From the NCBI GenBank assembly GCA_903813345.2, contig CAIIXF020000006.1, positions 40,372,848 to 40,436,847 on the forward strand: a stretch of 64,000 nucleotides of DNA, written 5' to 3'. The notes below the pieces were generated by a model that ran no database searches, was not told the DNA's origin, and worked only from the letters and a program-made list of their open reading frames with translations. This document shows, piece by piece, positions 6,437 to 37,384 of this stretch. Source of the stretch: Owenia fusiformis. Taxonomy: Eukaryota; Annelida; Polychaeta; Sabellida; Oweniidae. Numbering within the stretch: position 1 is the first letter of the stretch; every line of letters starts with the position of its first letter. A program made the translations under genes and the position numbers.

Positions 6437-7255
6437 TTCCTTGTCTTTCAAACGTCTGGTAGGCCTAAGATTCAAATTAACGGTTTTTTCTTGGATAGTT
6501 GGACCCGCGTGATTTTATTTCATATCTGCAAATTGATTGGATAGCGTATCGACTGATTTACATAATCTTCATGAATAATCAATTAGTAGCAAATATCGGC
6601 AAATAATATATTCGAGGTAATTATTTCTTCTCCTTCCATCTCAAAGATCTGCAAATATTTAGAGAACATCCGGAACCCAGATGACAATTAAGGCAAGACC
6701 TCGACATGCCTCGCTGTTATTACGAGTACACCATATCCTCTCAGTGATGTGGTGAAAAAGCAATCAAAAATGTCATCGACCAGATTTAAAGCACCAAACA
6801 TCACCATATCAAACCACAGGGATCACTGAGAGAGGATGTCTACATTGATCGATCATGTCATTCGAAGTATCATCCTAGGTAACTTAGGTAAATGACCCGA
6901 TATATCTTAGGCTGCAGATCACTGAATGATAACAAGATAACCTTATTCAAACGTTTAGTTGAATAGTGCCCTGGATTCTTTGAGAAAACTTTTTTCCTCA
7001 ACTTACTCATTAAACTGACTAATACGCTCCAAATTAAACGCTATTACAGTTAAATTAGTAGTTTCAAAGAATAAATACAAATGTCTCTTTGACAGGTACT
7101 AAGGTTAAGTGAGAGAGATTGCTGTTTTTTATTAAACGCTAAACGGTGCACTCACGTACCAATGGATAGAGCAGCCCGTCATTAGAATTCACACAAAGCA
7201 CCCGAGTTCCGTCAAATAACTGTGACATGGAGCTGGCCCTTTTACAAATATACAC

Positions 7256-7660
7256 CATCGTCCATAAATTTAGCAAATGGGAGTCCCGTTTTGGATCGCT
7301 TATCCAAAGCCTCTTTGTGTTCGGCGACTTTAAAACGTCCAATTTGTCATTTCCAGAACTATTTTAAATAGGAACAGTTTTGATTCGAACATTAACAGGC
7401 GTATAGTGGTATGTTATCCAATCGAGACTTCCGCTTGACAAACTTGTGGAGGGGGGTGTAACTGCCAAACTTATGAAGGGGAGTGAAACTGCCAAACTTA
7501 TGAAGGGGAGTGTAACTGCCAAACTTATGAAGGGGAGTGAAACTGCCAAACTTATGGGGGAGTGTAAGTGTAAAATTATGGAGGGGAGTGTAACTGCCAA
7601 ACTTATGGAGGGGAGTGTATCTGCCAAACTTATGGAGGGGAGTGTAATTGTTTGCTGCTG
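7256..7660. repeat. MITE body with 27-bp terminal minisatellite (about 8 copies)
   Basis: A short element body (7256-7440, containing GTTTTGGATCGCTTAT) is followed by units of about 27 bases reading AACTGCCAAACTTATGGAG plus GGGAGTGT. The unit is the terminus of a MITE family seen once per end elsewhere (16170, 17031). Open frames over it (7364-7726 minus, 7446-7661 plus) are repeat translations. The counterpart at 32672-33322 is about three times longer. Confidence 0.8.
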
Positions 7661-10600
7661 ATTCGCGTTGAAAAAAAGTAATAGACTATTTCCCCATTTG
7701 ATCATGAGTATTACATTTAATTTCACCCCCCCCCCCCATGTTGGAAAAAAGTAAAAACACTAGCCATAATAAATGCGTTATAGATATAAACTACAAATAA
7801 TGGGGTTTTGACAACGGATGTATCTCTTTTGTGGTGCAACCTAGAAGTCTTTAAGGAGCTACTTTTTAACCATCGGAAGTCCCTGATGAACATTGGAGTA
7901 ATTATTTACATGAATAACTCATTTTAAAACAATTTAGAAAAGAATGTAAATATGCGGCAATTCCCTTCGGAATCTACCTTTACGTAACTACAGTAAAACC
8001 TATAACCCTCTCAAATCCGAGAGATTTTGCTTTGTATATTAGTCACGATGGAAATATGATTTGATATTATTCCATATATTTTTAGTTATTTTATATTCAT
8101 ATTTCTTGTTTTGAAATAAGCCTCATTAGTAGTTTTTTCATTTCCAAAATTCCAATCAAAAAGTACCATGCTTGACAATTTTAAAACAATTCCGTAGGTG
8201 ATTACTTACGTCAATGGAAATTCAGGGCTCAAACATTAATTTAGCAAAGACGCTGAATGTCTGAATAAGCCTCAAACCACAACTATATTGTTCAGCAAAT
8301 GAAAAGAGAATCGTTATATGAATTTTCAAAGAGGCTCTCTTAAGAAAGGCACAATCAAGACACTCTAGATATTTTTGGATATTACGTTTTACCACAGATT
8401 CAGTATTCACCTCTACAGTATATAAACTGATCGAATTACTTTCGCCAAAACTAATTTAATCTGGAATTTGGATATACTGTCCATAATCCATATGCTATCT
8501 GATTGGTCGTTCAATTTGTTAATCTGAACGTGATTGGCTGCCTGGTTTAAGGGGTCATGTGCGAGCGCCTGTCACTCGACGGGGATTCCCGTCAAAGGCC
8601 GCGGAATCAATTGTGTTCAATTCTGACAGTTTGTTGTTCTGTTGATTATTTCAATATAAAACGACAATAATACCTTGATAACTTGATCTCAAAATATGCT
8701 TAAGGTATGTGAGATTATACCGTAAGTAGTTATAGTGGGACATCATTGTTTTTCCAGGGGAAACCCATGGTATAATGCATCTTTAAAGATCGATTAAAAA
8801 TCGGATACACAACTGAAAAAACACAATGTTAATGTCAATGTCCTTTAGCTTACTATTTTAATCTATCTCTTTTACGACGTCCGTTTGTCGTTATATCAGT
8901 TGTTAACAATGCTTATTAGTTTCTATTCATTGATGATGGGTGATAACATTCCTTTCTTGTATTAGCACGCATCTTATATAATCAATCATTTTTCTGGCTG
9001 ACCAATAAGAAATACGTTCGGTAATCCGCTGTAACAAACAGATTTAGACAGCTTTAATGCGATAAAATGGCAATGATCTGTTCACGATACCGGTCACCTT
9101 GAAAATCATTTCATTGAACCTTTCTACACACGTGCTGACATCACCAGTGGGACCTGACATCATTCTGTCTTTAATAACATAAGATTTAGTAACCGTAAGC
9201 CAATAACCTAGGCAACTGGTTAAGTCACCCTTCAAGATCGGGCCTCGCTGAGCTTAGAGAAGATGTCATGATTAAATTACGTTGTATTATTTGTAAAATA
9301 CATGTATCATAATTTACCTTATCTATATAAGTAAGTAACATACGTGTCTAGGACCGTGAATAATGTCATACATAGGGATGTTACACATTTACTTTCCGCT
9401 ACAATAGTTGAGGTTTTGTCACTTAAAACTATATAGCACACAAGAAGTTTGCAAATGAAATTATACAAACATTGTTCCCAAAATTCAAGATGGCCGCCAT
9501 ACCATGAATAGTTCTATTTTTCGTATTTGGATGAAACTAAATGAATCGAAACTTCAGGATCTACTACATGTAGGATTGTAGGTAATTATTTTCCAAGCAT
9601 CATATGATGTGAAAATCAGAACTATCATCTACAAGTTATCATTCAATAATTTCCAACATAATGACAAAATAAGACTCACAATGTTAAAACCCGATGAATT
9701 TTAAAATCGATTCACAAAATGTGACCGATCAATTTGTACATGTCATTTGGGTCCTCTAAATGGATCTGAAGTCAATTTGAACCTAGGTAATTCGGTCAAA
9801 TACCAAATACTGATTTCGGAAAATTGTATTATTTCACTGACAGGGGAACAAAAAGCCTGAGGCATTCCTAACTCATCAGACAGTGGAAGATGAGAATCAG
9901 ATGAGCATTCAAGATCACCCATGGTCATAGCGACATAATAACTAATGGATGGATATTTTCTCATATGACTTTTGGCAACCCAATCATTTCCCAGAAGGCG
10001 CTCTTTGACGCCAGAGAAGCCCTTCTCACAATATAAGGTAAATTATGATACTGTAGGAAAATTAATATGTTGATACATATATCTTTCAACTTCAGACATA
10101 TTGTTTATTTCTTCACTCGATGTTGTCATGATTAGTTTGGTTCAACAACACCATTTATCAATATATTCTTAAACTCTGGGGAAGAGAGGTGCCTAGTAAA
10201 AAAGTAAATTAGAAATTACCGAGCAACACATTGCGAAATGCTATACATTTTTTTATGTCGTTTATAGAGAAATAAATGAATATAGAAAACAAACAATAAA
10301 TTACACCATCTGCTTTGTATATTCACCAGGTACATAACTATGTTAACAGTATAATTACTGCATGTTCTTCAAGGAAGTGGAAATAAAATAGAAAAATATA
10401 CAATACATTACACCATTGGCATAAAAAAGGTGTATTGATCAGACGTATCACAAGTCCGTATATTGACGTGGAGACCCCCTTGGCCTTTGATAACTGAGAA
10501 AACGATTGTATTTTAACTTATTCATTAAGCTGACTAGTATGTTACAAATTAAACGCTTTTACAATTAAATGAGTAGTTCCCGAGAATTGATATAAATACC

Positions 10601-11220
10601 TCTTGACAGGCACTTAGGTAAAATGATAGCAAAATTGGTTTACTAAACGTTACATCCTAATATATACCGAGTGGGTATTACTTTAGATTAAAGAACGTAC
10701 TCCTTTGAACGCATACGTGATGCGACCTGATTCTCGTTTTATATATTGACCTCAAGTATTGATATCATGACGAAGTAGAGAATATACCCAAGAAATCAGG
10801 ATCATAGGAATTCTGGGTGTTTCCCCCTTTTAACATGATGGGAGGGAGACTTGCCGTTTTGGATAGACGAGGAGAATAATTTTAAATCAGAGAAAATTGC
10901 AGCATTATCAGCGAGATTAATTGTTTATCTAAAATAACTGGGTCTTGAGGTGAGCGCAACTTAATGAATGGAATTCCAATCAGCAACGCATTGTTCTTTA
11001 TTATATCATCTTTGACTTTGACATTGACTTGTATCGTCATCTTATATTTTAAGTCGTGATCATTTATGATAAAAGCGGCAGAAAAGACTAGCGAATGCAA
11101 AATGTAAAAAGAAACTTGCCAATGTTTTTCTTACAATTCTAATTTTGCAAATTTGATATTAATCAAATATCTCATGAAATGCAGAAGTTAATTAAAAAAT
11201 AATGAAAATTAATTTAAGAT
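7661..11220. other. Non-coding part of duplication copy A
   Basis: No gene is seen. About 8445-8790 is a dispersed repeat, also present at 34070-34412 (direct) and 44757-45115 (inverted), with terminus CCATGGTATAATGCATCTTT. The segment 10326-10612 occurs a third time at 24361-24626. Bases 10867-11220 have no counterpart in copy B. Confidence 0.6.
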
Positions 11221-22737: not shown

Positions 22738-24360
22738 CCCAGGTCCCAGTCGGTGATGAAGCAGCAGCGCAGCTTCCGGTAGGGCCAGATTTCATTGATG
22801 TTCGGGCCAAATTCGACAATCATTTCATTGCTCGCCGTAATATTGTCTATGAACGATCACAATTTAACAATAGGAAACAACTAGAAGGGGAAAATGTCGA
22901 ACAATTTACCACTTCCCTCTACGGACTGGCAGAGAATTGTAATTATGGACAATTCAAAGAGTAATTCATCAGAGACCGTATTGTGGCAGGAATAAGGGAC
23001 AAAAAAGTCCAAGACAAGCTACAATTAAATAGTGAATTGACACTTGAGAAAGCTATAAACACTGCTTGATTGAACGAGCAAGTAAAGCGACGACAACTAA
23101 ATACTGAGGATAGGAAGGAGCCAGCTGGAATCGACCTTCTTTCTTCACGCCAAGACAAAAAGAAAACAACATCCACATCAGAATGTTTCCGGTATGGAAA
23201 TGGCCCACATCACAAGAAAAAGAACAGCAAGACAGTGTAATTCCTGTGGAGTCCTCGGCCACTGGGACAAAATTCTGCAACTCCAAAGGAACACAGAAGG
23301 GGTCATCTCATGTAAAATATGTTTCAAGTGGAAGTCCTGACTCTGACTCAGACACGTGTACAGAATCTGATCACAAATCTGAGTTAACAACAAATATGAA
23401 TTACACATTTATAGGTAAAGTGAGTTGTGCTGAGTCAAAGTCAGATTCAACCTGTGAGTGTTAATAAGAAGCCTATAGAATTTACTATAGATACAGGGGA
23501 TACTGATGTTGCTATTTTACCTAAAATATGTATATGATGACCTCAACTTGAAAATCCAACTTGAAAAACCAGAAAGAGTGTTGAATGGTGCAAATCAGTC
23601 TAAAATTGAGTGTGTTGGGCAGTTTACTGCCAAGGTCCGCTCTCACCAGGCAAAAACTGAGCAGAAAGTGTATGTTGTAAAAATTTTTAAATATGCTTTG
23701 CTTGGTAGGCCGGCCATAAAGGCCCTCGATGTGGTAAAAATTGTTTACAATGTCCAGGTAAATAAAAAGCACCCAAAATTGTTCTCGGTTCTAGGTGTTA
23801 TGCAGGGGAAGTATAATATTAAACATGATGTCAATGCTTAGCCGTATGCTGTAAATTCTCCTAGAAGAGTTACATCAGTTTCACTGTTTAAAATGATTAA
23901 AAACAAATTAGAGGGATTAGAAAAGGACGATGTGATCTTCAGGGTGAATGAACCAAGTGAATGGTGTGCACCAATGGTTCCAGTGCCCAAATACAATAAA
24001 GATGGCACTGTGAAAGATGTCAGAATATGTGTAGATTATACAAAACTCAACAAGTGGGTGAAATCTGAGAAATATATGATTCCAAGTGTTAATAAAATAC
24101 TAAGGAGACTGGCAGAAGCCAAGATTTTCACGAAACTTGATGCCAATTCTTGGTTTCACCAAATCCCTCTCACACAGTCCTCTCAACTCCTCACAACATT
24201 CATCACTCCATTTGGAAGGTGGGCTTATAAGAGGATGCCTTTCGGCATCGGCCCCAGAACATGCTCAAAAGCGCCTTTGTCAGGTGCTTGATGATCTGGA
24301 TGGGGTTGAAGTTTTCATGGATGATATTTTGGTTTATGCTTCAAATCATGAGTTGCATGT
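22738..24360 (+). mobile_element. Decayed Ty3/gypsy retrotransposon fragment (gag-protease-RT)
   Basis: The order of remnants is that of a Ty3/gypsy element. A gag-like segment (about 22760-23100) has an in-frame TAA at about 22963 and a TGA at about 23068. A degenerate zinc-knuckle region follows at about 23185-23280, with a frameshift and the last Cys missing. A protease motif Asp-Thr-Gly lies within FTIDTGDTDVAILP near 23480-23520. The reverse transcriptase runs from 23893, with KLDANSWFHQIPL near 24130-24170 and, after a frameshift near 24250, FMDDILVYA at about 24317-24343. No LTRs, RNase H or integrase are visible. The fragment stops abruptly at about 24360, where a segment shared with 10326 and 35905 begins. 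It is not functional. Confidence 0.85.
23893..24291 (+). pseudogene. Gypsy reverse transcriptase, frameshifted
   Basis: A 132-residue frame covers the N-terminal half of a Ty3/gypsy reverse transcriptase: variable-region start, then VRICVDYTKLN (about residues 44-54), KLDANSWFHQIPL (about 79-91) and TPFGRWAYKRMPFGI (about 104-118). The polymerase active-site segment (FMDDIL) continues in another frame (24137-24541), so a frameshift near 24250 separates them. It belongs to the retrotransposon fragment around it. Confidence 0.85.
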
Positions 24361-25565: not shown

Positions 25566-26589
25566 ATTACTCCTTGACTCCTTGGCTTTCAAACATCTAG
25601 TAGGCCTAAAGTTTAAATTAACGTACGTTTTTTTCTTGGATAGTTGGACCCGCGTAACCTTATTTTAAATCTGCAAATCGATTGGACAGCGAATCGACTG
25701 ATTTACATAATACTCATGAATTATCAATTAGTAGCAAATATCGGCAAATAATATATTCGAGGTAATTATTTCTTCTCCTTCCATCTCAAAGATCAGCAAA
25801 TATTTGGAGAACACCCGGAATCCATGGCTGATGACAATAAAGGCAAGAACTCGACTTGCCTCGCTGTCATTACGATAACGCGTACCATATCCTCTCGGTG
25901 GTATGGTGAAAAAGCAATCAAAAAATGTCATCGACCAGATTTAATGCACCAAACATCACCATATCAAACACAGGGACCACTGAGAGAAGATGTCTACATT
26001 GATGAACAGCATGTCATTCGAAGCATCATCCTATACTAAGGTGAATGACCCGAGATATCTTAGGCTGCAGATCACTGAATGATGACAAGATAACCTGATT
26101 CAAACATTTAGTTGAATAGTGCCCTGGATTTTTTGAGAAAACTATCACTGTGAAAAAAGCCAAATATAGTTTGTACTATAGCAAACTATTTTTTAGAATA
26201 TCCCCCATATAGTTTGAATATCACCTAAAATATGGGCGAGAATAGTTTCTCCCATATTCCTAAAAACGGAACACTTTAATATAAGTCCTGATATACTCTC
26301 CCATACGCCCATATAAACTGAAATAAGCTGCATATATCATTGCAGAGTGTATATCTTTACTGAACTATTTTCCACTTATACGCCTCAAAGTAGGAATCAA
26401 ACCTACTATATGCGGTGAAAAACAACTAATATTTAATTAAAACAGACTATATCAAACTATACTTGGCTGATTCTTCTCTTATTCTACCTCAAAACAAACT
26501 ATACGCGTCTTATACGCGATATTACGTAATAGCTTCAGTTCCCGAGTTTGTTGTTTTAACAGATTAAAAGCAAAGTCCAGCATCGAATG

Positions 26590-29480
26590 TATTTTGTTTT
26601 TAATGCTAATTAATGCGCTTGATCAGTTTAATCTGGTCATTTCTACAACTGAGGGTTCTAATTTCCATCAAAAAGTCATTTATAAATTAAGCTTTTTACT
26701 TTTACTAAATTGGGCAATGGCAGTCGAATTATAATTAACACCGTGTTAAATTTTGGATTCATTTCATTAAGTCTGTGAAAAGTTACATTTTTCAATTAAC
26801 TTGGTATTGAAGTAAAAATAATATAGAATAAAATGTTTAATATAGTTGCAATAAGAGGGAATCGTAGAGAATATTTTTTCCTGTACAGTAGGCAGTTATT
26901 TCCTGTATTATTGCGGAATAAGATATAATAACTATTTTTAAAAACTAATTTTTCTTTAATGATATTATTCGTGTATTATTTGAAGGGAACAACATATATT
27001 GCCATATAATATAGAATAATATTCTAGTCAGGAGCAAATGATATGTTGGCATTTGCAATCAAAACCGGATTAGGCCTATATGAGTTTATTTTTGAGCCGT
27101 TAATCCCTAAGTATTCCATTCCTATGAAATGAGTTTCATTCACACTAATTAATCCGTTTATTAGGATTAATTTCTCCAGCTGATGGTTCTTATTTCTCAA
27201 AAAGATTATTTGCAAATAAAGTTTTTACATATTTATTTGATTGTATAATGTCCATCGAGTTATGATTAAGATTGTGTTAAATTTGGAATTCAATCGATCA
27301 ATCCATTGGAAAGTTAATTTTTTATTCTAAATTGATGAGTTTTCCTCACATTTTTACTGTATTGTTTCTCTGTCACATCAGGTTTACAACAAACAAAATT
27401 TAAATCCCCCGGCCTCTTACACAGGTACGAACAACCATCTGTACTATTCACTTTGCCAACCAAAAAAACAGTGATGACACAAACTGCTCAATATTCAATT
27501 AATATATTACGCATTTTATACAAGCCCGTACCTAAGGACCCCCTTTCCATGGCCAACAATTTCTTAAAAGAGATGCAGTTTTTCATCATTCACATACATG
27601 TATTGACATGTCAGAGCAATGTAATTAGTAAAACTTTAATCCCTAAGTATTCAATTTCTATGAATTGAATTTTGTTCACCCTAATAAATAATCTGTTTGT
27701 TAGAGTTAATGGATTAATCTCTACAGTCTATGTTTCTAATTTCCACAAAAATAAATTACAAATTAAGTTTTTCATATTTATTTGATTGTATAGTATACCT
27801 CGTGCTATGATTAACAATGTGTTCAAATTTGGATTCAATCGATTAACTCATTGGGAATTAATTTTTTGATTTTTATTTTGATTGTGGGGTTTCCTCACAA
27901 TTTAACTCCATTGTTTCTCTGTAACAAACAACATTTAAAGCCCTCTCTTACACAGACACAAACAAACACCACTATTCACTTCGCAAACCACACAAAACTG
28001 CAAAAATATTCAGCTCAATACATTACACATTTGATACAGGTCTGTGGCCATGGGGGGAGGGTCGTTGGGTTCATGTGAATCCCCCACCCCTTTGCCAAGA
28101 TTCTTTCAAAATCATTGGTATGTTTTGAAAATTGACCCCCTGGGCTCAAACTTATTACGAGCCTGTAATATACCAGAAATATTGATTCCATCTGACAAAT
28201 CACTTATAATAAATTAAGAAATAACATGCATTATGTAACTGATACAAGTTCATGTAGTATTAAGCCATATTAGAACAAAGTCAAAACTTATATTCTTTCC
28301 CATTTCACAATTCATGCGGTTTCTGTTATCCATATGATATCTGAGATAAACACCCGTGAAAAACAACAGAGATTAGCCTTTGCAATACAATTGTTTCTAT
28401 TAGAATCGGACCATTTCTGTTTATTACAGCTGGTTTTATTAATCATTCTTTGTTTTCCGTTTCAATATATACATATACAAAGCAAGATTCGGTATGTTTA
28501 GTTGATAATGTGATAATGCAACTAAAGAAACGGGCGCATTTTACATTTATTGCAAATGTTTCATCTGACAAATCGATGATTATGTTTTGAGCAAATTGGT
28601 GCATGGAAGAACAAACTGTTCCAAATAACATACGGTATGGACATACAGCTATGTCAGAGCAATATGATAAGTAAGACTTTAATCCCTAATTATTCAATTT
28701 CTATAAAATGAGTTTCGTTAACACTGATAACTAATCTGTTTGTTAGAGTCAATGGATTAATTTCCTACAGCCAACGATTCTAAGTTCAACAAAAATAATT
28801 TGCAAATTAAGTTTTTTATATTTATTTGATTGTATATTATCCCCCATGTTATGATTAACATTGTGTTAAAATTTGGATTCAATCGATCAATTCATTGGAA
28901 AAATATTTGTTTAATTCTTAATTAATAAGTTTTCCTCACATGTTTACTCTATTGTTTCTCTGTCACTTCAAGGTTACAATAAACGACATTTAAATCCCCC
29001 TCTTATATTACAAAGGCACAGCCACCTGTATTCACTTTTAGCCACAAAAACAAACAGTCTTGACACAGAAATGCTCAATATTCAGCTAAATACATTACGC
29101 ATTTTATACAGGCCCATACCTAGCGACCCCCTCCCCTTGGCCAACAATTCTTTCAAGATCATGCAGTTTTTCACCATCTCGTACATGTATTGACATGTCA
29201 GAGCAATATAAATAAAACTTTAATCCCCAAGTATTTAATTTCTATGACATGAGTTTTGTTCACTGATAACTAATCCGTTTGTTATGAATTAAAGGATTAA
29301 TATCTACAGGCGATGGTTTTGATTTCCACAGACAAATAATTTGCAAATTAAGTTTTTCTAATTTATTCGATTCTGTAGTGTCCCTCTTGCTATGATTAAT
29401 ATTGTGTTAAAATTTGGAATTAATCGATTAACTCATTGAAAAGTTAATTTTTTGATATTTAATAAATGACTTTTCTTCAC
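26590..29480. repeat. About 540-bp repeat, 4-5 diverged copies
   Basis: A module containing TTAATCCCTAAGTATTCAAT, a TTTCCACAAAAATAA stretch, GTGTTAAAATTTGGATTCAA and TTTTCCTCACATTTTTACTC recurs with the first motif at 27102, 27640, 28681 and 29220. An older partial copy starts at about 26590. Spacing is about 540, 1040 and 540 bases, so one unit holds an extra 500 bases. It lies wholly inside the CACTA-like element. Confidence 0.75.
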
Positions 29481-29520
29481 CTTTAATCCACAGTTATTAC
29501 CCAAAAGTTGAAAGAAACAG

Positions 29521-30985
29521 TGAAAGGTTAAACTAGGCTCATGAGTATGTTTCAATTTGAGGCATAGTATGTGATGTGCTCCAGGTACATCAGTATATTA
29601 AAAATTTAATTTGGCGCATTAGTATAGTTCAATTTGGCGCATTATTTATGATGTTCAAAGTACATCCTTACAGTGAAAGATTAAACTTGGCTCATGAGTA
29701 TGTTTCAATTTGGGGCATAGTATGTCATGTGCTCCAAGTACATCAGTATTTCAAAAAGTTCAATTTGGCGCGTTAGTATAGACCAATTTGGCGCGCTATT
29801 TATTATGTTCAAATTTCATCCTTGTATTGAAAGGTTAAACTTGGCTTATGAGTATGTTTCAATTTGGGAATAGTCTGTGACATGCTCTAAGTTCATCAGT
29901 ATATTAAAAAGTTCAATTTGGCGCATAACCATAGTTCAATTTGGCGCATTATTTATGATGTTCAAAGTACATCCTTACATTGAAAGGTTAAACTTGGCTC
30001 ATGAGTATGTTTCGATGAGACATAGTATGTGATGTGCTCCAAGTTCATCAGTATATTAAAAAGTTCAATTTGGCGCATTATCATAGTTCAATTTGGCGCG
30101 TTATTTATGATGTTCAAAGTACATCCGTAACATTAAAAGGTTAAACTTGGCTCATGGATATGTTTCAATTTGGGACATAGTATGTGATGTGCTGTAAGTT
30201 CATCAGTATATTAAAAAGTTCAATTTGGCGCATTATCATAGTTCAATTTGGCGCGTTATTTATGTTGTTCAAAGTACATCCTTACATTGAAAGGTTAAAC
30301 TTAGCTCATGAGTATGTTTCAATGGGACATAGTATGTGATGTGCTCCAAGTTCATCAGTATATTAAAAAGTTCAATTTGGCGCATTATCATAGTTCAATT
30401 TGGTGTGTTATTTATGATGTTCAAAGTACATCCTTACATTGAAAGGTTAAACTTGGCTCATGAGTATGTTTCAATGTGGGACATAGTATGTGATGTGCTG
30501 TAAGTTCATCAGTATATTAAAAAGTTCAATTTGGCGCATTAGTATAGTTCAATTTGGCGCATTATTTATGATGTTCAAAGTACATCCTTACATTGTAAGG
30601 TTAAACTTGGCTCATGAGTATGTTTCAATTTGGGACATAGTATGTGATGTGCTCCAAGTACATCAGTATATTAAAAAGTTCAATTTGGCGCATTAGTATA
30701 GTTCAATTTGGCGCATTATTTATGATGTTCAAAGTACATCCTTACAATGAAAGGTTAAACTTGGCTCATTAGTATGTTTCAATTTGGGATATATTATGTG
30801 ATGTGCTTCAAGTACATCAGTATATTAAAGTTCAATTTGGCGCATTAGTATCATTCAATTTGGCGCATTATTTATGATGTTCAAAGTACATCCTTACATT
30901 GAAAGGTTAAACTTGGCTCATGAGTATGTTTCAATTTGGGACATAGTATGTGATGTGCTCTAACTTCATCAATATATCAAAAAGC
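29521..30985. repeat. 153-bp satellite array, about 9.5 copies
   Basis: The motif GGTTAAACTTGGCTCATGAG recurs every 152-154 bases (29526, 29680, 29832, 29986, 30139, 30293, 30444, 30599, 30752, 30905). Each unit also has two TTCAATTTGGCGCATTA segments and ATGTTCAAAGTACATCCTTA. The small frames here are repeat translations. Copies are close in sequence, so the array is fairly young or homogenised. Confidence 0.9.
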
Positions 30986-31110
30986 TATATATCAAAATTG
31001 AACTATACTATAATGCGCCAAATTGAACCTTTTAATATACTGATGAACTTACAGCACATCACATATTAGGTCTCAAATTGAATTAAACATACTCATGCGC
31101 GGAGTTTAAC
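30986..31110. repeat. Inverted partial satellite unit
   Basis: The sequence (AATGCGCCAAATTGAACC ... ACTGATGAACTTACAGCACA) is the reverse complement of the preceding 153-bp unit. The array thus ends in a head-to-head junction that can fold back on the last unit. Confidence 0.85.
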
Positions 31111-31441
31111 CCTTTTAACCATTTTATTCATGAAATTGTAAAATATAATGTACTCTGTAATTACTGCATGCTATGTAATTGACAAATATATTGAAATATA
31201 TGCATATTTTATACTTAAACTTTGTGTTTTGTTCTGTATCGTTTTGTGACACTTGTTGATAAGGTTGATCCGTACTATTATATATGTTATAGATTGTACA
31301 TGTAACCTAATGATTTGCATACAAAAATAAGTTTTCGTTCAGCGCAATCCCTCATCCTTCACAATATTTAATCCCTGGGATTTTATACGATTCCTTATTT
31401 CATACATTTGAATATTGTTTTCTTTTTAAAATTTAAAAATG

Positions 31442-31473
<32 letters not shown>

Positions 31474-31476
31474 ACT
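31442..31476. repeat. (ATC)n microsatellite
   Basis: About 11 uninterrupted CAT/ATC triplets inside the CACTA-like element. Confidence 0.95.
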
Positions 31477-32514
31477 TCTGCCTTATAATTATACAACAAT
31501 TAATTTTCCAATCCTCCAGATGGCTTCACTCTAAACCTCCGAACCCCCTCCCTGACTAGGGGTATAATTTGTCATAGGAAAGTCAGGATTGTCTCAATTT
31601 AAAACTAACAAAGAAATCAAGATACGCTTTCCCTCATTTTAATTTTAATTTTAACTACACCGAAATTGCTGCTGATTTTTGGTAAGACTAAAAACAAACT
31701 TCAAATTAATATGCGCTTATCTTACTCAAAATGGAGAATAAATAATTTACCGATTTACCCAAATTTTTCATTCCACTTTTTATATTGACTTACATTTTTA
31801 AAATGCATTTAAATTCATTTGAAATCATATACTTCAACATCATAAAATTTTTAATGAGATCTCAGACATTAAGTTTGATTAAGCTTTCTTAAGTGAAATG
31901 CATGATTTTATTTGTTTACATTAGCGCTTAATTGAAAAATAAAATAGGATTAACTCCAAGCAAATTAAGGCACATCAAAGAATATATAGCCTCGCGTATA
32001 AGAGGCGTATAGTTTGTTTTTGGATTACGTAATACATACTATACTCATCTTTTCTATGTACTTATATCCTACTATTCCTGGCTCTTAAGAATAATCGGAG
32101 AATAGTTCAAACGATATTTAGTATCGTAGAGTATATACCACCAATACTAAATGTTCCGCTTCTGAGGCAAGAATAGTTTGTTTCCCATACCAAATACAAT
32201 ATAGTGAGGACATACTGAACTATATTCACAAATAGTTTGCCACTTATACGCTACTATATTTGGCTTTTTGCACAGTGTATTTTCCTCAACTAACTCATTA
32301 AACTGACTAATGCGCTCCAAATGAAACGCTATTACGGTTTTAGTAGTTTCAAAGAATAAATACAAATGCCTCTATGACAGGTACTAAGGTTAAGTGAGAG
32401 CGATTGTTGTTTTTTATTAAACGCTAACTGTGCACTAACTTACCAATGGATAGAGCAGTCCGTCGTTAGAATTCACACAAAGCACCCGAGTTCCGTCAAA
32501 TATTTGTGTATTTG

Positions 32515-33322
32515 GCAGCTGGGAGTCCCGTTTTGGATCGCTTATGAAAAGCCTCTTTGTGTTCGGCGACTTTAAAACGTCCAATTTGTCAATTTCAGAA
32601 CTGTTTTAATTAAGGAACAGTTGTCAAACATCAACAGGGGTAGTATGTTATCCAATCGAGACTTCCGCAAAACTTATGGAGGGGAGTGAAACTGCCAAAC
32701 TTATGGGGGAGTGTAACTGCCAAACTTATGAAGGGGAGTATAACTGCCAAACTTATGAGGGAGTGTAACTGCCAAACTTATGAAGGGGAGTGTAACTGCC
32801 AAACTTATGGAGGGGAGTGTAACTGCCAAACTTATGGAGGGGAGTGTAACTGCCAAACTTATGAAGGGGAGTATAACTGCCTAACTTATGGGGGAGTGTA
32901 ACTGCCAACTTTATGAGGGAGTGTAACTGCCAAACTTATGAGGGAGTGTAACTGCCAAACTTATGAAGGGGAGTGTAACTGCAAAACTTATGGAGGGGAT
33001 TGTAACTGCCAAACTTATGGGGGAGTGTAACTGCCAAACTTATGGAGGGGAGTGTAACTGCCAAAATGGAGGGGAGTGTAACTGCCAAACTTATGGAGGG
33101 GAGTGTAACTGCCAAAATGGAGGGGAGTGCAACTGCCAAACTTATGGGGGGTGTAACTGCCAAATTTATGGAGGGGAGTGTAACTGCCAATCTTACGGAG
33201 GGGAGTGTAACTGCCAAATTTATGGAGGGGAGTGTAACTGCCAAATTTATGGGGGAGTGTAACTGCCAAATTTATGGTGGGGAGTGTAACTGCCAAACTT
33301 ATGGAGGGGAGTGTAACTGTAG
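32515..33322. repeat. MITE body with expanded 27-bp minisatellite (about 24 copies)
   Basis: Copy-B counterpart of 7256-7660. The body segment (GTTTTGGATCGCTTAT, 32532-32547) is followed from about 32672 by roughly 24 units of CCAAACTTATGGAGGGGAGT with length variants, some lacking ACTTATG. Open frames rich in Cys-Asn-Cys-Gln (plus strand) or Ser-Leu-Ala-Val-Thr (minus strand) are translations of this array, not genes. Confidence 0.85.
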
Positions 33323-36300
33323 AGCTGCTAATTCGCGTTGAAATAAAGTAAGAGACTATTTTCATGAGTATTACAATTAATTTTATCCCTCATGTTGGAA
33401 AAAGTAAAAACGTTGTAGCAATAATAGATGCGTTATAGATATAAATTACGAATAATGAGATTTTGACAGCGGATGTATCTCTTTTGTGGTGCAACCTAGA
33501 AGTGTTTAAGGAGCTACTTTTTAACCACCGGAAATCCCTGATGAACATGGGAGTAATCATTTACATGAATAACTCATTTTAAAACAATTTAGAAAAGAAT
33601 GTAAATATGCGGCAATTCCCTCCGGAATCTACCTTTACGTAACTACCGTACAACCTGTAACCCTCTCAAAGTCAAGAGATTAACAATTACTTTATATTTT
33701 AGTCACTGTTGGAAATATGATTTGATATTATTTCATATATTTTTAGTAATTCTTTATTCATATTTCTTGTTTTGAAATAAGCCTCGTTAGTAGTTTTTTT
33801 AATGTCCAAAACCTGAGAGTACCTTGCTTGACAATTATAAAACAATGCCTCGGTAAACACTGGCGTCAATCGAAATTCAGGACTCAATCATTCATTTAGC
33901 AAAGAGGCCGAGTGTCTGGATAAGCTTCAAACTATAACTATATTGTTCAACAAATGAAAAGAGAACTGCTATATGAATTTTCAAAGAAGCTCTCTTAAAA
34001 GAGACTCTACATGTAGATATTTTTGCATATTATTTTTGCCACCGATTCAGTATTCACCTATATACAGTATCTACCAATCGAATTACTTTCGCCGAAACTA
34101 ATTAAATCTGGAATTTGAATGTACTGTCCATAATCCATGTGCTATCTGATTGGTTGTTCAATTTGTTAATCTGAACGTGATTGGGTGCCTGGTTTAAGGC
34201 ACATGCGAGCGCCTGTCACTCGGCGGGGATTCGCGAAATCGCGGAATCAATTGTGTTCAATTCTAGTTTATTGTTCTGTTGATTATTTCAACATAGCGAC
34301 AACGATACTTAGATAACTCGGTCTCAAAATATGCTTAAGGTATTTGAGCTTATAAGTAATTATAGTAGGACATCATTGTTTGTCCAGGAGAAACCCATGG
34401 TATAATGCATCTTTAAAGATCGATTAAAAATCGGATACACAACTGAAAAAAACACAATGTTAATGTCAATACACTTTAGCTTACTATTTTAATCTATCTC
34501 TTTTACGACGTCCCTTTGTCGTTTTATCAGTTGTTAACAATGCTTATTAGTTTTTATTCATTGATGATGGGTGATAACATTCCTTTCTTGTATTAGCACG
34601 CATCTTGTGTAATCAATCATTTTTCTGGCTGACCAATAAGAAATACGTTCGGTAATCCGCTGTTACAAACAGATTTAGACAGCTTTAATGCGATAAAATG
34701 GCAATGATCTGTTCACGACACCGGTCACCTTGAAAATCATTTCATTGAACCTTTCTACACACGCGCTGGCATACCCAGTGGGACCTGACACCATTCTGTC
34801 TTTAATAACATATGATTTAGTAACCGTAAGCCAATAACCTAGGCAACTGGTTAAGTCATCCTACAAGATCGGGCCTCGATGAGCTCAGAGAAGATGTAAA
34901 CAAATTACGTTGTATTATTTGTAAAATACATGTATCATAATTTATATATTTATTTATAATTTATATAGGTAAATAACATCTAAGACCATAAATAAATACA
35001 TTCCGCGACAATAGTTGAGGTTTTGTCACTTGAAACTAGCAGAAGCATAAGAAGTTTGCAAATGTATTTATTCAAACAAAATTGCAGATTGTTCCCAAAA
35101 TTCAAGATGGCCGCCATACCATGAATAGCTTTTTTCGAATTAAGATGAAACTTAGTGAATCGAAACTTCAGGATTTAGGTAGCCTAATTATTTTCCAAGC
35201 ATCATACGATGTGGAAATCAGAACTATCATCTGAAACTATCAATTAGGCTCACAAATGTTAAAACCCGATGAATTTTAAAATCGATACACAAAATGTCAC
35301 CGATCAATCATGTCATTTTGGTCCTCTGCACGGATCTGAAATCAATTTGAACCTAGGTAATTCGGTCAAATACCAAATACTGATTTCGGAAACTTGTATT
35401 ATTTCACTGACAGGGGAACAAAAAGCCTGAGGCATTCCTAACTTATCAGACAGTGGAAGATGAGAATCAGATGAGCATTAAAGATCACCCATGGTCATAG
35501 CGACATAATAACTAATGGATGGATATTTTCTCATATGACTTTTGGCAACCCAATCATTTCCCAGAAGGCGCTCTTTGACGCCAGAGAAGCCCTTCTCACA
35601 ATATAAGGTAAATTATGATAGGAAAATTAGTATGTTGATACATATATCTTTCAACTTCAGACATATTGTTTATTTCTACACTCGATGCTGTTAGGATTAG
35701 TTTGGTTCAACAAAACCATTTATCAATATATTCTTAAACTCTGGGGAAGAGAGGTGCCTAGTAAAAAAGTAAATTAGAAATTACCGAGCAACACATTGCG
35801 AAATGCTATACGTTTCGTTTTGTTGTTTTGTTTTTTATGTCGTTCATAGAGAAATAAATGAATATAGAAACAAACAATAAATTACACCATCGGCTTTGTA
35901 TATTCACCAGGTAAATAACAATGTTAACAGTATAGTTCCTGCATGTTCTTCAAGGAAGTAGAAATAAAATAGAAAAATATGCAATACATTACACCATCGG
36001 CTAAAAGTTGTATTGATCAGACGTACCACAAGTCCGTATATTGACGTGGAGACCCCCTTGGCCTTTGATAACTGAGAAAACGATTGTATTTTAACTTATT
36101 CATTAAGCTGACTAGTATGTTACAAATTAAACGCTTGTACAATTAAATGAGTAGTTCCCGAGAATTGATATAAATACCTCTTGACAGGCACTTAGGTAAA
36201 ATGATAGCAAAATTGGTTTACTAAACGTTACATCCTAATATATACCGAGTGGGTATTACTTTAGATTAAAGAACTAAAGAACGTACTCCTTTGAACGCAT

Positions 36301-37384
36301 ACGTGATGCGACCTGATTCTTGTTTTATATATTGACCTCAAGTATTGATATCATGAAGAAGTAGAGAATATACCCAAGAAATCAGGATCATAGGAATTCT
36401 GGGTGTTTCCCCCTTTTAACATGATGGGAGGGAGACTTGCGGCAGAAAAGACAAGAATGTAAAATGAAACATGCCAATGTTTTTTTTTACAATCCCAATT
36501 TCGCTTTAAGATACTGCCATATCCAATTACATTAGAATTAAAAAGGGGGGCACCCTGTGCATAACGATCTGTACCAAGCGTAGAATTGACCTAGAAATGC
36601 GATTAACCCTAATGTGGATAGGGGGGATCTTCAGATCTAGGAAAGGTATTTTACCCACGTTTTTTGTCCTAAAAAGGCTGATGCCATATACATATTTCAC
36701 ATGTATTACCCTTTCCTGGCTAACAAAATATAACATGTTGTTTTTTAAAGTAAAAATGCACCAAAAAGTCTCCCCTGCTTTTGACCTAATTTGACCTACT
36801 TTTTGCGATTCTAAAACACCATCCTCAAGAGTTTTGAATTACCTATAATATGGTACCTTAGTTTTTACTATACCTCTTTGAAAACGCCAGAAATTTGGGG
36901 TAAATGTTTAAATCTCCCTAATAATTTAAGATGGTAAGTTGGTAACCATAAAAATAGAAAAAATAATGCATTATTGCAAAAATCGTTGGTTTTCCTGAAG
37001 TTAATTAAGTATGCACTTTTATGAATATTTAGTTTCTCGGACACTCTGTACATGGCGACCAACTTTTTTGACACCATTTCCCACCTAAACTTGACACCAT
37101 TTCTCCCCTAAACTTGACGCTTGACATATTTCCATTAGCGCAGGATTTGATTATTCAGCGCCTTAAGAGGAAATGCCATTTTTAGATCTTTAAATATTGA
37201 CACATATCTCTTAACAAACCATCAGAATATTTGTTCCTATCGTTTTAAGTGATAGGAGCTTCAAATAAAAAAGCAGGAGGAAAAGCAGGGGTTGAAAATC
37301 AGGACAACATTTAAGGAAATGATGTGGGTGGGTTGTTTGGATCTTCCCTGTCTCAAAGTCCAAATTATTCGTTCGTCACGGGAA
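33323..37384. other. Non-coding part of duplication copy B
   Basis: Aligns with 7661-11607 and 13505-13866 with small indels. No gene is seen. Homology with copy A ends at about 37262 (GATAGGAGCTTCAA) and resumes at about 37385 opposite 19280. The junction at about 36890 fuses sequence equivalent to 11606 directly with that of 13505. Confidence 0.6.

What the first reader, a model, noticed from the sequence alone, without database searches (positions are those of the whole stretch)
26146..32277. 6.1-kb CACTA-like element carrying its own satellite, with a visible empty site
The ends (CACTGTG, about 25 bases, one mismatch) and flanking TAT are seen directly, and copy A at about 6990 reads through without the insertion. 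CACTA/EnSpm elements are known for CACT(A/G) ends, 3-base target duplications and subterminal repeats; the ATAGTTT clusters fit. Unusually, no transposase is seen and the interior is mostly a 540-bp repeat and a 153-bp satellite. The inference is a large non-autonomous element that spreads satellite DNA.
Basis: partly seen in the sequence, partly recalled or inferred. Interest (0 to 1): 0.75.

Follow-up and report, generated by a model that had tools for sequence, protein, structure and literature searches.

The report
Jumping DNA that carries satellite arrays
This is one copy of a family of mobile DNA elements with no protein gene found in them that carry, in the same place, an array of 153-base repeats whose length differs between copies, which shows in one genome how satellite DNA can be spread by jumping.

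Summary
Window 26146-32277 is a 6,132-bp insertion with 25-bp CACTGTG inverted ends (one mismatch), a TAT target duplication and an empty site at 6990-6992 in a diverged duplicate. In its own genome (498 Mb) the terminus occurs 85 times with at most one mismatch, never with two, twice with three; the reversed control finds none. All 32 left/right pairs found have a perfect 3-bp target duplication (22 different trinucleotides). All 16 copies read in full carry the 153-bp array in the same place (7-22 monomers). The 150 satellite monomers listed (of 534) form 36 clusters, 33 near such a terminus. No copy read in full encodes a transposase, and none of 14 Transposase_21 hits lies inside a pair. 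Best reading: a non-autonomous EnSpm/CACTA-type cut-and-paste family, moved recently (closest copies 0.5-0.7% apart) by an unidentified transposase, with the satellite as passenger; arrays change by whole monomers. Correction: the 540-bp repeat is not private but shared with another, abundant family with a different end. Satellite-carrying elements are known (oyster Helentrons, plant CACTA Jozin), so this is a new variant of a known kind. Superfamily membership rests on ends and target duplications, not on a transposase.

The parts
26143..26145 (.). left copy of the 3-bp target duplication, TAT
   Evidence: 32 of 32 pairs of this family have a perfect 3-bp duplication
26146..32277 (+). whole non-autonomous element, 6,132 bp
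   Evidence: empty site in copy A
26146..26170 (+). left terminal inverted repeat CACTGTGAAAAAAGCCAAATATAGT
   Evidence: genome counts
26146..26545 (+). left subterminal region with 6 ATAGTTT/AAACTAT motifs, among the least diverged parts between copies
27100..29484 (+). ~540-bp repeat module (units near 27100-27635, 27636-28038, 28679-29214, 29220-29484; the second and fourth partial)
   Evidence: shared with the CACTTGGTG family at about 77%
29517..30984 (+). satellite array, 9.6 x 154 bp (153-bp consensus)
30995..31118 (-). inverted satellite monomer closing the array (124 bp)
   Evidence: longer inverted monomers (130 or more model positions) were extracted at the end of the array in 5 of 16 copies
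31878..32277 (+). right subterminal region with 3 ATAGTTT motifs
32253..32277 (-). right terminal inverted repeat CACTGTGCAAAAAGCCAAATATAGT
32278..32280 (.). right copy of the target duplication, TAT
6990..6992 (.). empty target site in the diverged duplicate (copy A), TTT for TAT

Best explanation
It is a member of a non-autonomous cut-and-paste DNA transposon family of EnSpm/CACTA type (CACTG ends, 3-bp target duplication, subterminal repeats). A transposase made elsewhere (not identified; inferred) recognises the roughly 400-bp ends, cuts the element out and inserts it at 3-bp targets of little or no sequence preference. The 153-bp array sits between the 540-bp module and the right end and travels as a passenger, so each jump plants a new array. 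The array also gains and loses whole monomers, singly or in blocks, by slippage, unequal exchange or gap repair. Shown: unit structure, end pairing, target duplications, close copies at different loci, shared array content between loci, block changes. Inferred: which transposase, and the cut-and-paste step itself.
For: Terminus: 85 genome matches with at most 1 mismatch, 0 with 2, 2 with 3; control 0; 64 of the 85 belong to the 32 pairs. 32 of 32 L/R pairs have perfect 3-bp duplications, 22 different trinucleotides, including a 38.6-kb pair. 16 of 16 copies read in full hold the array in the same place, 7-22 monomers. The nearest relative of a monomer is in another copy for 179 of 202, as when arrays move whole: the 14 monomers of L007 match those of the C3 17-kb copy in order, and L001, L002 and L004 also match in order. 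Closest copies, on different contigs, differ by 0.49-0.69% in their ends. Diversity is about 1% in the outermost 50 bp and mostly 4-9% from 0.45 kb inward on the left, 6-22% on the right (not strictly rising), as expected if the ends are what a transposase must recognise. Block changes: four consecutive monomers of L011 recur, identical, 766 bp (five monomers) further on; two monomers are missing in L001 against L002 and L004; 9, 22 and 16 monomers in three copies 1.0-1.5% apart.
Against: No transposase is encoded in the copies read and none could be assigned: 14 Transposase_21 hits and 41 matches to an EnSpm-type transposase lie outside all 32 pairs, the nearest 99 kb from a terminus. Published animal relatives (SmTRC1 type) have CCC ends and 2-bp duplications (PMC1636069, passages), unlike this. 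Distance of the ends and distance of the arrays correlate only weakly (Mantel 0.34, 68 of 2000 permutations as high), so exchange between arrays of different copies is not excluded. Nearest monomers in the same copy (23 of 202) are somewhat more than the shuffled mean (13, maximum 26), so some local amplification occurs.
Confidence: 0.85

Rival explanations
1. The element belongs to a different superfamily with CAC-type ends (not EnSpm/CACTA), for instance an undescribed animal group, and is moved by that group's transposase.
For: No Transposase_21 protein lies inside any of the 32 pairs. In one Transposase_21 family of this genome the homology of two copies stops at CGCCGGGG, i.e. an apparent end CCCCGGCG, not CACTG, like the CCC-ended animal elements of PMC1636069 (passages).
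Against: CACTA or CACTG ends, short inverted repeats and 3-bp duplications are given as typical for (plant) CACTA elements (PMC10741241, passage), and 3-bp duplications are seen in 32 of 32 pairs. A locus with a Transposase_21 frame and a nearby frame with a DUF4218 match, below that family's cut-off (25.1 against 27 bits), exists here (L015).
Confidence: 0.12
2. It is a rolling-circle element (Helitron/Helentron) with central satellite repeats, as in oysters.
For: Helentron derivatives carry central arrays of 140-180-bp monomers (PMC7492417, abstract and passages); layout flank-array-flank is similar.
Against: Oyster elements lack target duplications and prefer oligo-T (PMC7492417); here 32 of 32 have 3-bp duplications and the ends are inverted repeats.
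Confidence: 0.01
3. The arrays were captured or amplified anew in separate copies rather than carried by transposition.
For: Array size differs strongly even between close copies; adjacent monomers are somewhat more alike than distant ones in a copy (0.089 against 0.102).
Against: Same place and orientation in 16 of 16 copies read in full. Only 23 of 202 monomers have their nearest relative in the same copy (shuffled mean 13, maximum 26). Mean distance within and between copies is equal (0.102 and 0.102).
Confidence: 0.03

Closest known systems
CACTA-like element Jozin of Chenopodium with captured satDNA (PMC8978399, passages and section 10 read)
   Same: CACTA type, element of several kb, one satellite array (171-bp monomers, 32.5 copies in the copy described) close to the 3' end, reported in four elements of C. 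quinoa
   Different: The Jozin copies described have a Transposase_21 domain; here no copy read encodes a transposase, and all 16 read in full carry the array; different sequence and, by inference only, an animal genome
Cg_HINE, non-autonomous Helentrons of the Pacific oyster (PMC7492417, abstract and passages)
   Same: non-autonomous dispersed elements whose centre is an array of satellite-like monomers, mostly 140-180 bp
   Different: Helentron type, no target duplication; arrays mostly up to 5 monomers (longest 29.3)
SmTRC1 and other animal TRC elements (PMC1636069, passages)
   Same: animal CACTA superfamily; a region with tandem repeats is drawn in SmTRC1 (legend seen, not the figure)
   Different: CCC ends, 2-bp duplications (7 of 14 copies there), encodes Transposase_21. 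The L013 family of this genome resembles it more
Satellite-bearing MITEs, e.g. miDNA4 of Xenopus (cited in PMC9659126, passages)
   Same: satellite carried inside a non-autonomous DNA transposon
   Different: listed there as a MITE of Tc1-mariner type; MITEs are given as about 400 bp

Membership tests
EnSpm/CACTA superfamily | CACTA or CACTG ends | tested here: met
EnSpm/CACTA superfamily | 3-bp target duplication | tested here: met
   32 of 32 pairs
EnSpm/CACTA superfamily | short terminal inverted repeats, mostly under 50 bp | tested here: met
   25 bp, one mismatch; weaker match (81%) to about 56 bp
EnSpm/CACTA superfamily | subterminal direct and inverted repeats | tested here: met
   ATAGTTT/AAACTAT 6 and 3 per 400-bp end in 16 of 16 copies
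EnSpm/CACTA superfamily | Transposase_21 (Tnp2) encoded between the ends by at least one autonomous member | tested here: inconclusive
   none seen in 16 copies read in full; 0 of 14 Pfam hits and 0 of 41 protein matches lie inside the 32 pairs. The genome search is not exhaustive, 16 pairs were not read in full, and a non-autonomous element need not encode it
Helentron/Helitron | no target duplication (as stated for oyster Helentrons) | tested here: not met
   3-bp duplications in 32 of 32 pairs
PIF/Harbinger | 3-bp duplication TAA or TTA | tested here: not met
   22 different trinucleotides in 32 pairs; TAA or TTA in 5
Animal TRC (SmTRC1 type) | CCC ends and 2-bp duplications | tested here: not met
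   CACTG ends, 3-bp duplications
EnSpm/CACTA superfamily | mobilised by an EnSpm transposase | not testable with these tools
   needs an excision assay

The most novel reading that the evidence does not exclude
The array is not only a passenger: its monomers share short motifs with the transposon ends and act as extra transposase-binding or spacing sequence, and its length is reset by gap repair after each excision. Satellite amplification would then be a direct by-product of cut-and-paste transposition, and would explain why no array-free copy was seen among the 16 read in full.
Probability: 0.12. Interest if true: 0.7.

Novelty: new variant of a known kind. Interest (0 to 1): 0.45.

Why it matters
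How satellite DNA gets dispersed through chromosomes is an old question. Here one family in one assembly gives 32 end-paired, target-duplicated insertions, 16 of them read in full with arrays of 7 to 22 monomers and measured divergence, so array gain and loss can be set against divergence directly. It also shows a CACTG-type carrier in what I take (by inference only) for an animal genome, where the described carriers that my searches listed are mainly Helentrons and MITEs, next to plant CACTA/EnSpm cases.

Tried and rejected
Autonomous partner: (1) Transposase_21 (PF02992) genome-wide, 14 hits, none inside the 32 pairs. Four loci were fetched around hits, and no CACT-ended pair (10 of 14 end bases alike with a 3-bp duplication, or 13 of 14 without) was found in these 9.9-kb stretches; a larger element would have been missed. 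(2) Long copies of 13.1, 16.6 and 17.4 kb: the extra length is nested insertions without stop-free frames of 150 codons. The 38.6-kb copy was read only in part (19.8 kb): it holds two inverted repeats of another element around a 1.6-kb piece of this family. (3) Two unpaired left ends on C8 with a different interior looked like an autonomous form. They proved to be a 196-bp stub of this family lodged in CACGGGTAG-ended elements, which have 5-bp duplications. The stub is followed by a repeat of about 36 bp of its left flank, one base different, which fits interrupted repair after excision, but that reading is mine. (4) The CACTTGGTG family shares the 540 module but has a different end; among its 93 listed ends only one inverted pair lies within 50 kb, 45 kb apart.

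Chance ORF: a 135-codon frame open in 6 of the 13 copies scanned (shortened in two others) has no Pfam match and is stopped in the window copy. Motif sharing between satellite and ends is weak: 39 shared 7-mers against 23.1 in shuffles, 8 of 500 as high; 17 shared 8-mers against 7.2, 5 of 500; for 9-mers 54 of 500; no 10-mer is shared. One CACTTGGTG match inside a copy (L078) I took for chance.

Limits: the genome search scores only the best candidates (40 of 50 for each end, 40 of 55 for the satellite, 40 of 407 for the 540 unit, 40 of 1,276 for the L070 query), so copy numbers are lower bounds, and first-look candidates are not confirmed matches. The satellite table listed 150 of 534 matches. 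21 of 85 termini remain unpaired.
Full report
Observation. The window holds a 6,132-bp insertion at 26146-32277. Its ends are 25-bp inverted repeats with one mismatch, flanked by TAT on both sides. A diverged duplicate of the surrounding DNA (pieces of window 6438-10854 against 25579-36440) lacks it. With one TAT removed, the joined flanks match copy A at 92.6% over 474 aligned bases, and the target reads TTT there. So this is a real insertion next to a real empty site.

Anatomy. From left to right: a left end of about 400 bp with six ATAGTTT/AAACTAT motifs; a module of about 540-bp units, 73-83% alike in pairwise matches (27100-29484); an array of 9.6 monomers of 154 bp (29517-30984); an inverted monomer (30995-31118); about 1.1 kb of right-hand DNA whose last 400 bp hold three more motifs. 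No stop-free frame of 110 codons exists.

Genome-wide ends. The pattern CACTGTGNAAAAAGCCAAATATAGT was found 85 times at up to one mismatch and 87 times at up to three: 76 exact, 9 with one, none with two, 2 with three. The reversed control gave none in either search. A shortened 16-base pattern found 82 places, which by eye belong to the same set (three of the 85 have a change inside the 16 bases), so I saw no wider family with the same tip but other subterminal DNA.

Pairing. Searches with each 155-bp end (40 of 50 candidates scored in each) gave 31 left/right pairs of 4.7-38.6 kb, median 6,563 bp. One further pair, C12:8901427-8908559, came. These 32 pairs use 64 of the 85 termini; 21 are unpaired. 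In all 32 pairs the left end is CACTGTGA, the right end CACTGTGC, and the 3 bases outside match exactly; 22 different trinucleotides occur. That includes the copies with large nested insertions.

Interiors. Thirteen copies and three long ones were read in full, 16 of the 32 pairs. All 16 have the same order of parts, including the satellite array, with some pieces shortened or missing in individual copies. The three long copies, L009 and L010 owe much of their extra length to inserted DNA. In L009 the insert holds a frame with a DDE_3 match, Tc1/mariner-like by my reading. At 19 unpaired or unmatched ends a 0.75-1.1-kb interior stretch was fetched: 8 are family sequence throughout, 7 in part, 4 hardly at all. 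So some ends are stubs or truncated copies.

Satellite outside the ends. The search with one monomer listed 150 of 534 matches, from 40 of 55 candidates. I grouped these into 36 clusters. 29 have a terminus on both sides (within 36 kb to the left and 20 kb to the right) and 4 on one side. One of the 29, C2:3383732, has its left neighbour 26 kb away in another element and should count as one-sided; the C3 17-kb element counts twice and one C10 cluster joins two elements. Of the 3 clusters without a listed terminus, C61 has a slightly altered left end 14 kb away, C456 lies near the start of its contig, and C11:868-871 kb has two tandem 2.5-kb blocks with the satellite and no match to the family's left or right parts in the 8.4 kb read. 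The satellite is therefore nearly private to these elements in what was listed.

The 540-bp module is different. Its search had 407 first-look candidates, of which 40 were scored; beyond this family, seven loci at 82-83% appeared. A stub next to such DNA (L070) led to another family (40 of 1,276 first-look candidates scored; the query also held other DNA, so 1,276 is not its copy number) whose right end reads CACTTGGTG when turned round. It shares about 1.6 kb with this element at 77%, has no satellite match or tandem array in the 2.1 kb read, and its end occurs 93 times within two mismatches. Six of the seven loci at 82-83% lie 2.7-8.3 kb from such an end (coordinates). So the element is a mosaic: private ends and satellite, shared middle.

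Recent movement. In 16 copies the ends differ by 3.4% on average (substitutions, 1.4 kb of end sequence); the closest pairs, on different contigs, differ by 0.49-0.69%. Diversity is 0.7-1.2% in the outermost 50 bp, about 1-4% to 0.4 kb, and reaches 5-9% (left, 0.7-0.95 kb in) and 6-22% (right, 0.45-0.6 kb in) (the rightmost figures probably include alignment noise where copies differ by indels). This gradient fits ends kept by transposition while interiors drift.

How the array behaves. 202 monomers were extracted from the 16 copies, those covering at least 130 model positions; shorter ones were dropped. Mean distance is the same within and between copies (0.102 both). The nearest relative lies in another copy for 179 of 202. 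L007 and the C3 17-kb copy match monomer by monomer in order, although an 11-kb insert splits the latter. L001, L002 and L004 match in order, with two monomers missing from L001. In L011 four consecutive monomers recur, identical, five monomers further on. The window copy, L008 and L012, 1.0-1.5% apart in their ends, have 9, 22 and 16 monomers. Thus arrays are inherited largely whole at transposition and change by whole monomers. Against a strict passenger model, array distance and end distance correlate only weakly (Mantel r 0.34, 68 of 2000 permutations at least as high).

Transposase. Transposase_21 gives 14 genomic hits, nine of them the same 608-codon frame. The 397-codon Transposase_21 frame of L015, whose neighbour frame has a sub-threshold DUF4218 match, finds 41 matches. 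None of either set lies inside the 32 pairs; the nearest is 99 kb from a terminus. Two copies of the 608-codon family are 99.99% identical over 8.2 kb, and their homology stops at an apparent end CCCCGGCG, so by that end they are not the partner. Partner unknown.

A hint of excision. Two C8 loci hold the same 196-bp left stub inside copies of a CACGGGTAG-ended element, followed by about 36 bp that repeat the DNA left of the stub. Interrupted gap repair after excision would leave this; a deletion plus local duplication would too. The two loci may descend from one event.

Comparison. CACTA or CACTG ends with 3-bp duplications are the stated marks of plant CACTA elements (PMC10741241, passages); subterminal repeats too (PMC8978399, passages). 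Satellite arrays inside CACTA elements are in print for Chenopodium Jozin, near the 3' end as here, but in copies with a Transposase_21 domain (PMC8978399 section 10). In animals, oyster Helentrons carry such arrays (PMC7492417, abstract and passages). SmTRC1 has a tandem-repeat region, CCC ends and 2-bp duplications (PMC1636069, passages). A 2022 review table lists CACTA/EnSpm cases only for plants in the rows I saw (PMC9659126, passages). A 2025 review has no mention of CACTA or EnSpm (PMC12628747, term search), nor has an oyster satellitome paper (PMC11136912, term search). The listings named no animal CACTG element with a satellite in the titles and abstract starts shown; most subscription papers are not held.

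Verdict. It is a well-documented example of a known kind of process with a new carrier type, useful because many intact, recent copies with different array sizes are present.

Noticed in passing
L013 (C1:24237900-24247800) 6994-8152; L063: A different Transposase_21 family (9 genomic hits with the same 608-codon frame) has an apparent end CCCCGGCG and carries its own 6.2 x 152-bp array beside it; two copies are 99.99% identical over 8.2 kb. Perhaps SmTRC1-like.
   Followed up: partly
L065/L066 (C7:39552400-39572200): Two inverted copies of another large element, 99.985% identical over at least 6.7 kb, flank a 1.6-kb piece of this family inside the 38.6-kb copy.
   Followed up: partly
L102 1-2126; 93 genomic ends: Abundant family with right end CACTTGGTG shares the 540-bp module at about 77%; its other end is unknown, and only one inverted pair of the known end lies within 50 kb.
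   Followed up: partly
L089, L090, L093-L100: CACGGGTAG-ended elements: 280 terminus matches within 3 mismatches; 5-bp target duplications in 5 of 6 copies checked, 6 bp in the other (read).
   Followed up: partly
L061/L062, inside the C3 17-kb copy: The 11-kb nested insert has two other tandem arrays near its ends (15.8 x 190 bp and 14.9 x 119 bp): perhaps another satellite-carrying element.
   Followed up: no
L055 (C12:8987633-8988262): Two right ends of this family lie 155 bp apart in the same orientation, perhaps a repair product.
   Followed up: no
window 7439-7647 and 32670-33319: A 27-bp minisatellite has 7.9 copies in duplicate A and 24.9 in duplicate B, beside the insertion.
   Followed up: no
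G000 C3:235657-1736687: 14 of the 41 EnSpm-type transposase matches cluster in the first 1.8 Mb of contig C3.
   Followed up: no
window 23893-24291: Frame that looks like a retrotransposon reverse transcriptase fragment (by eye).
   Followed up: no
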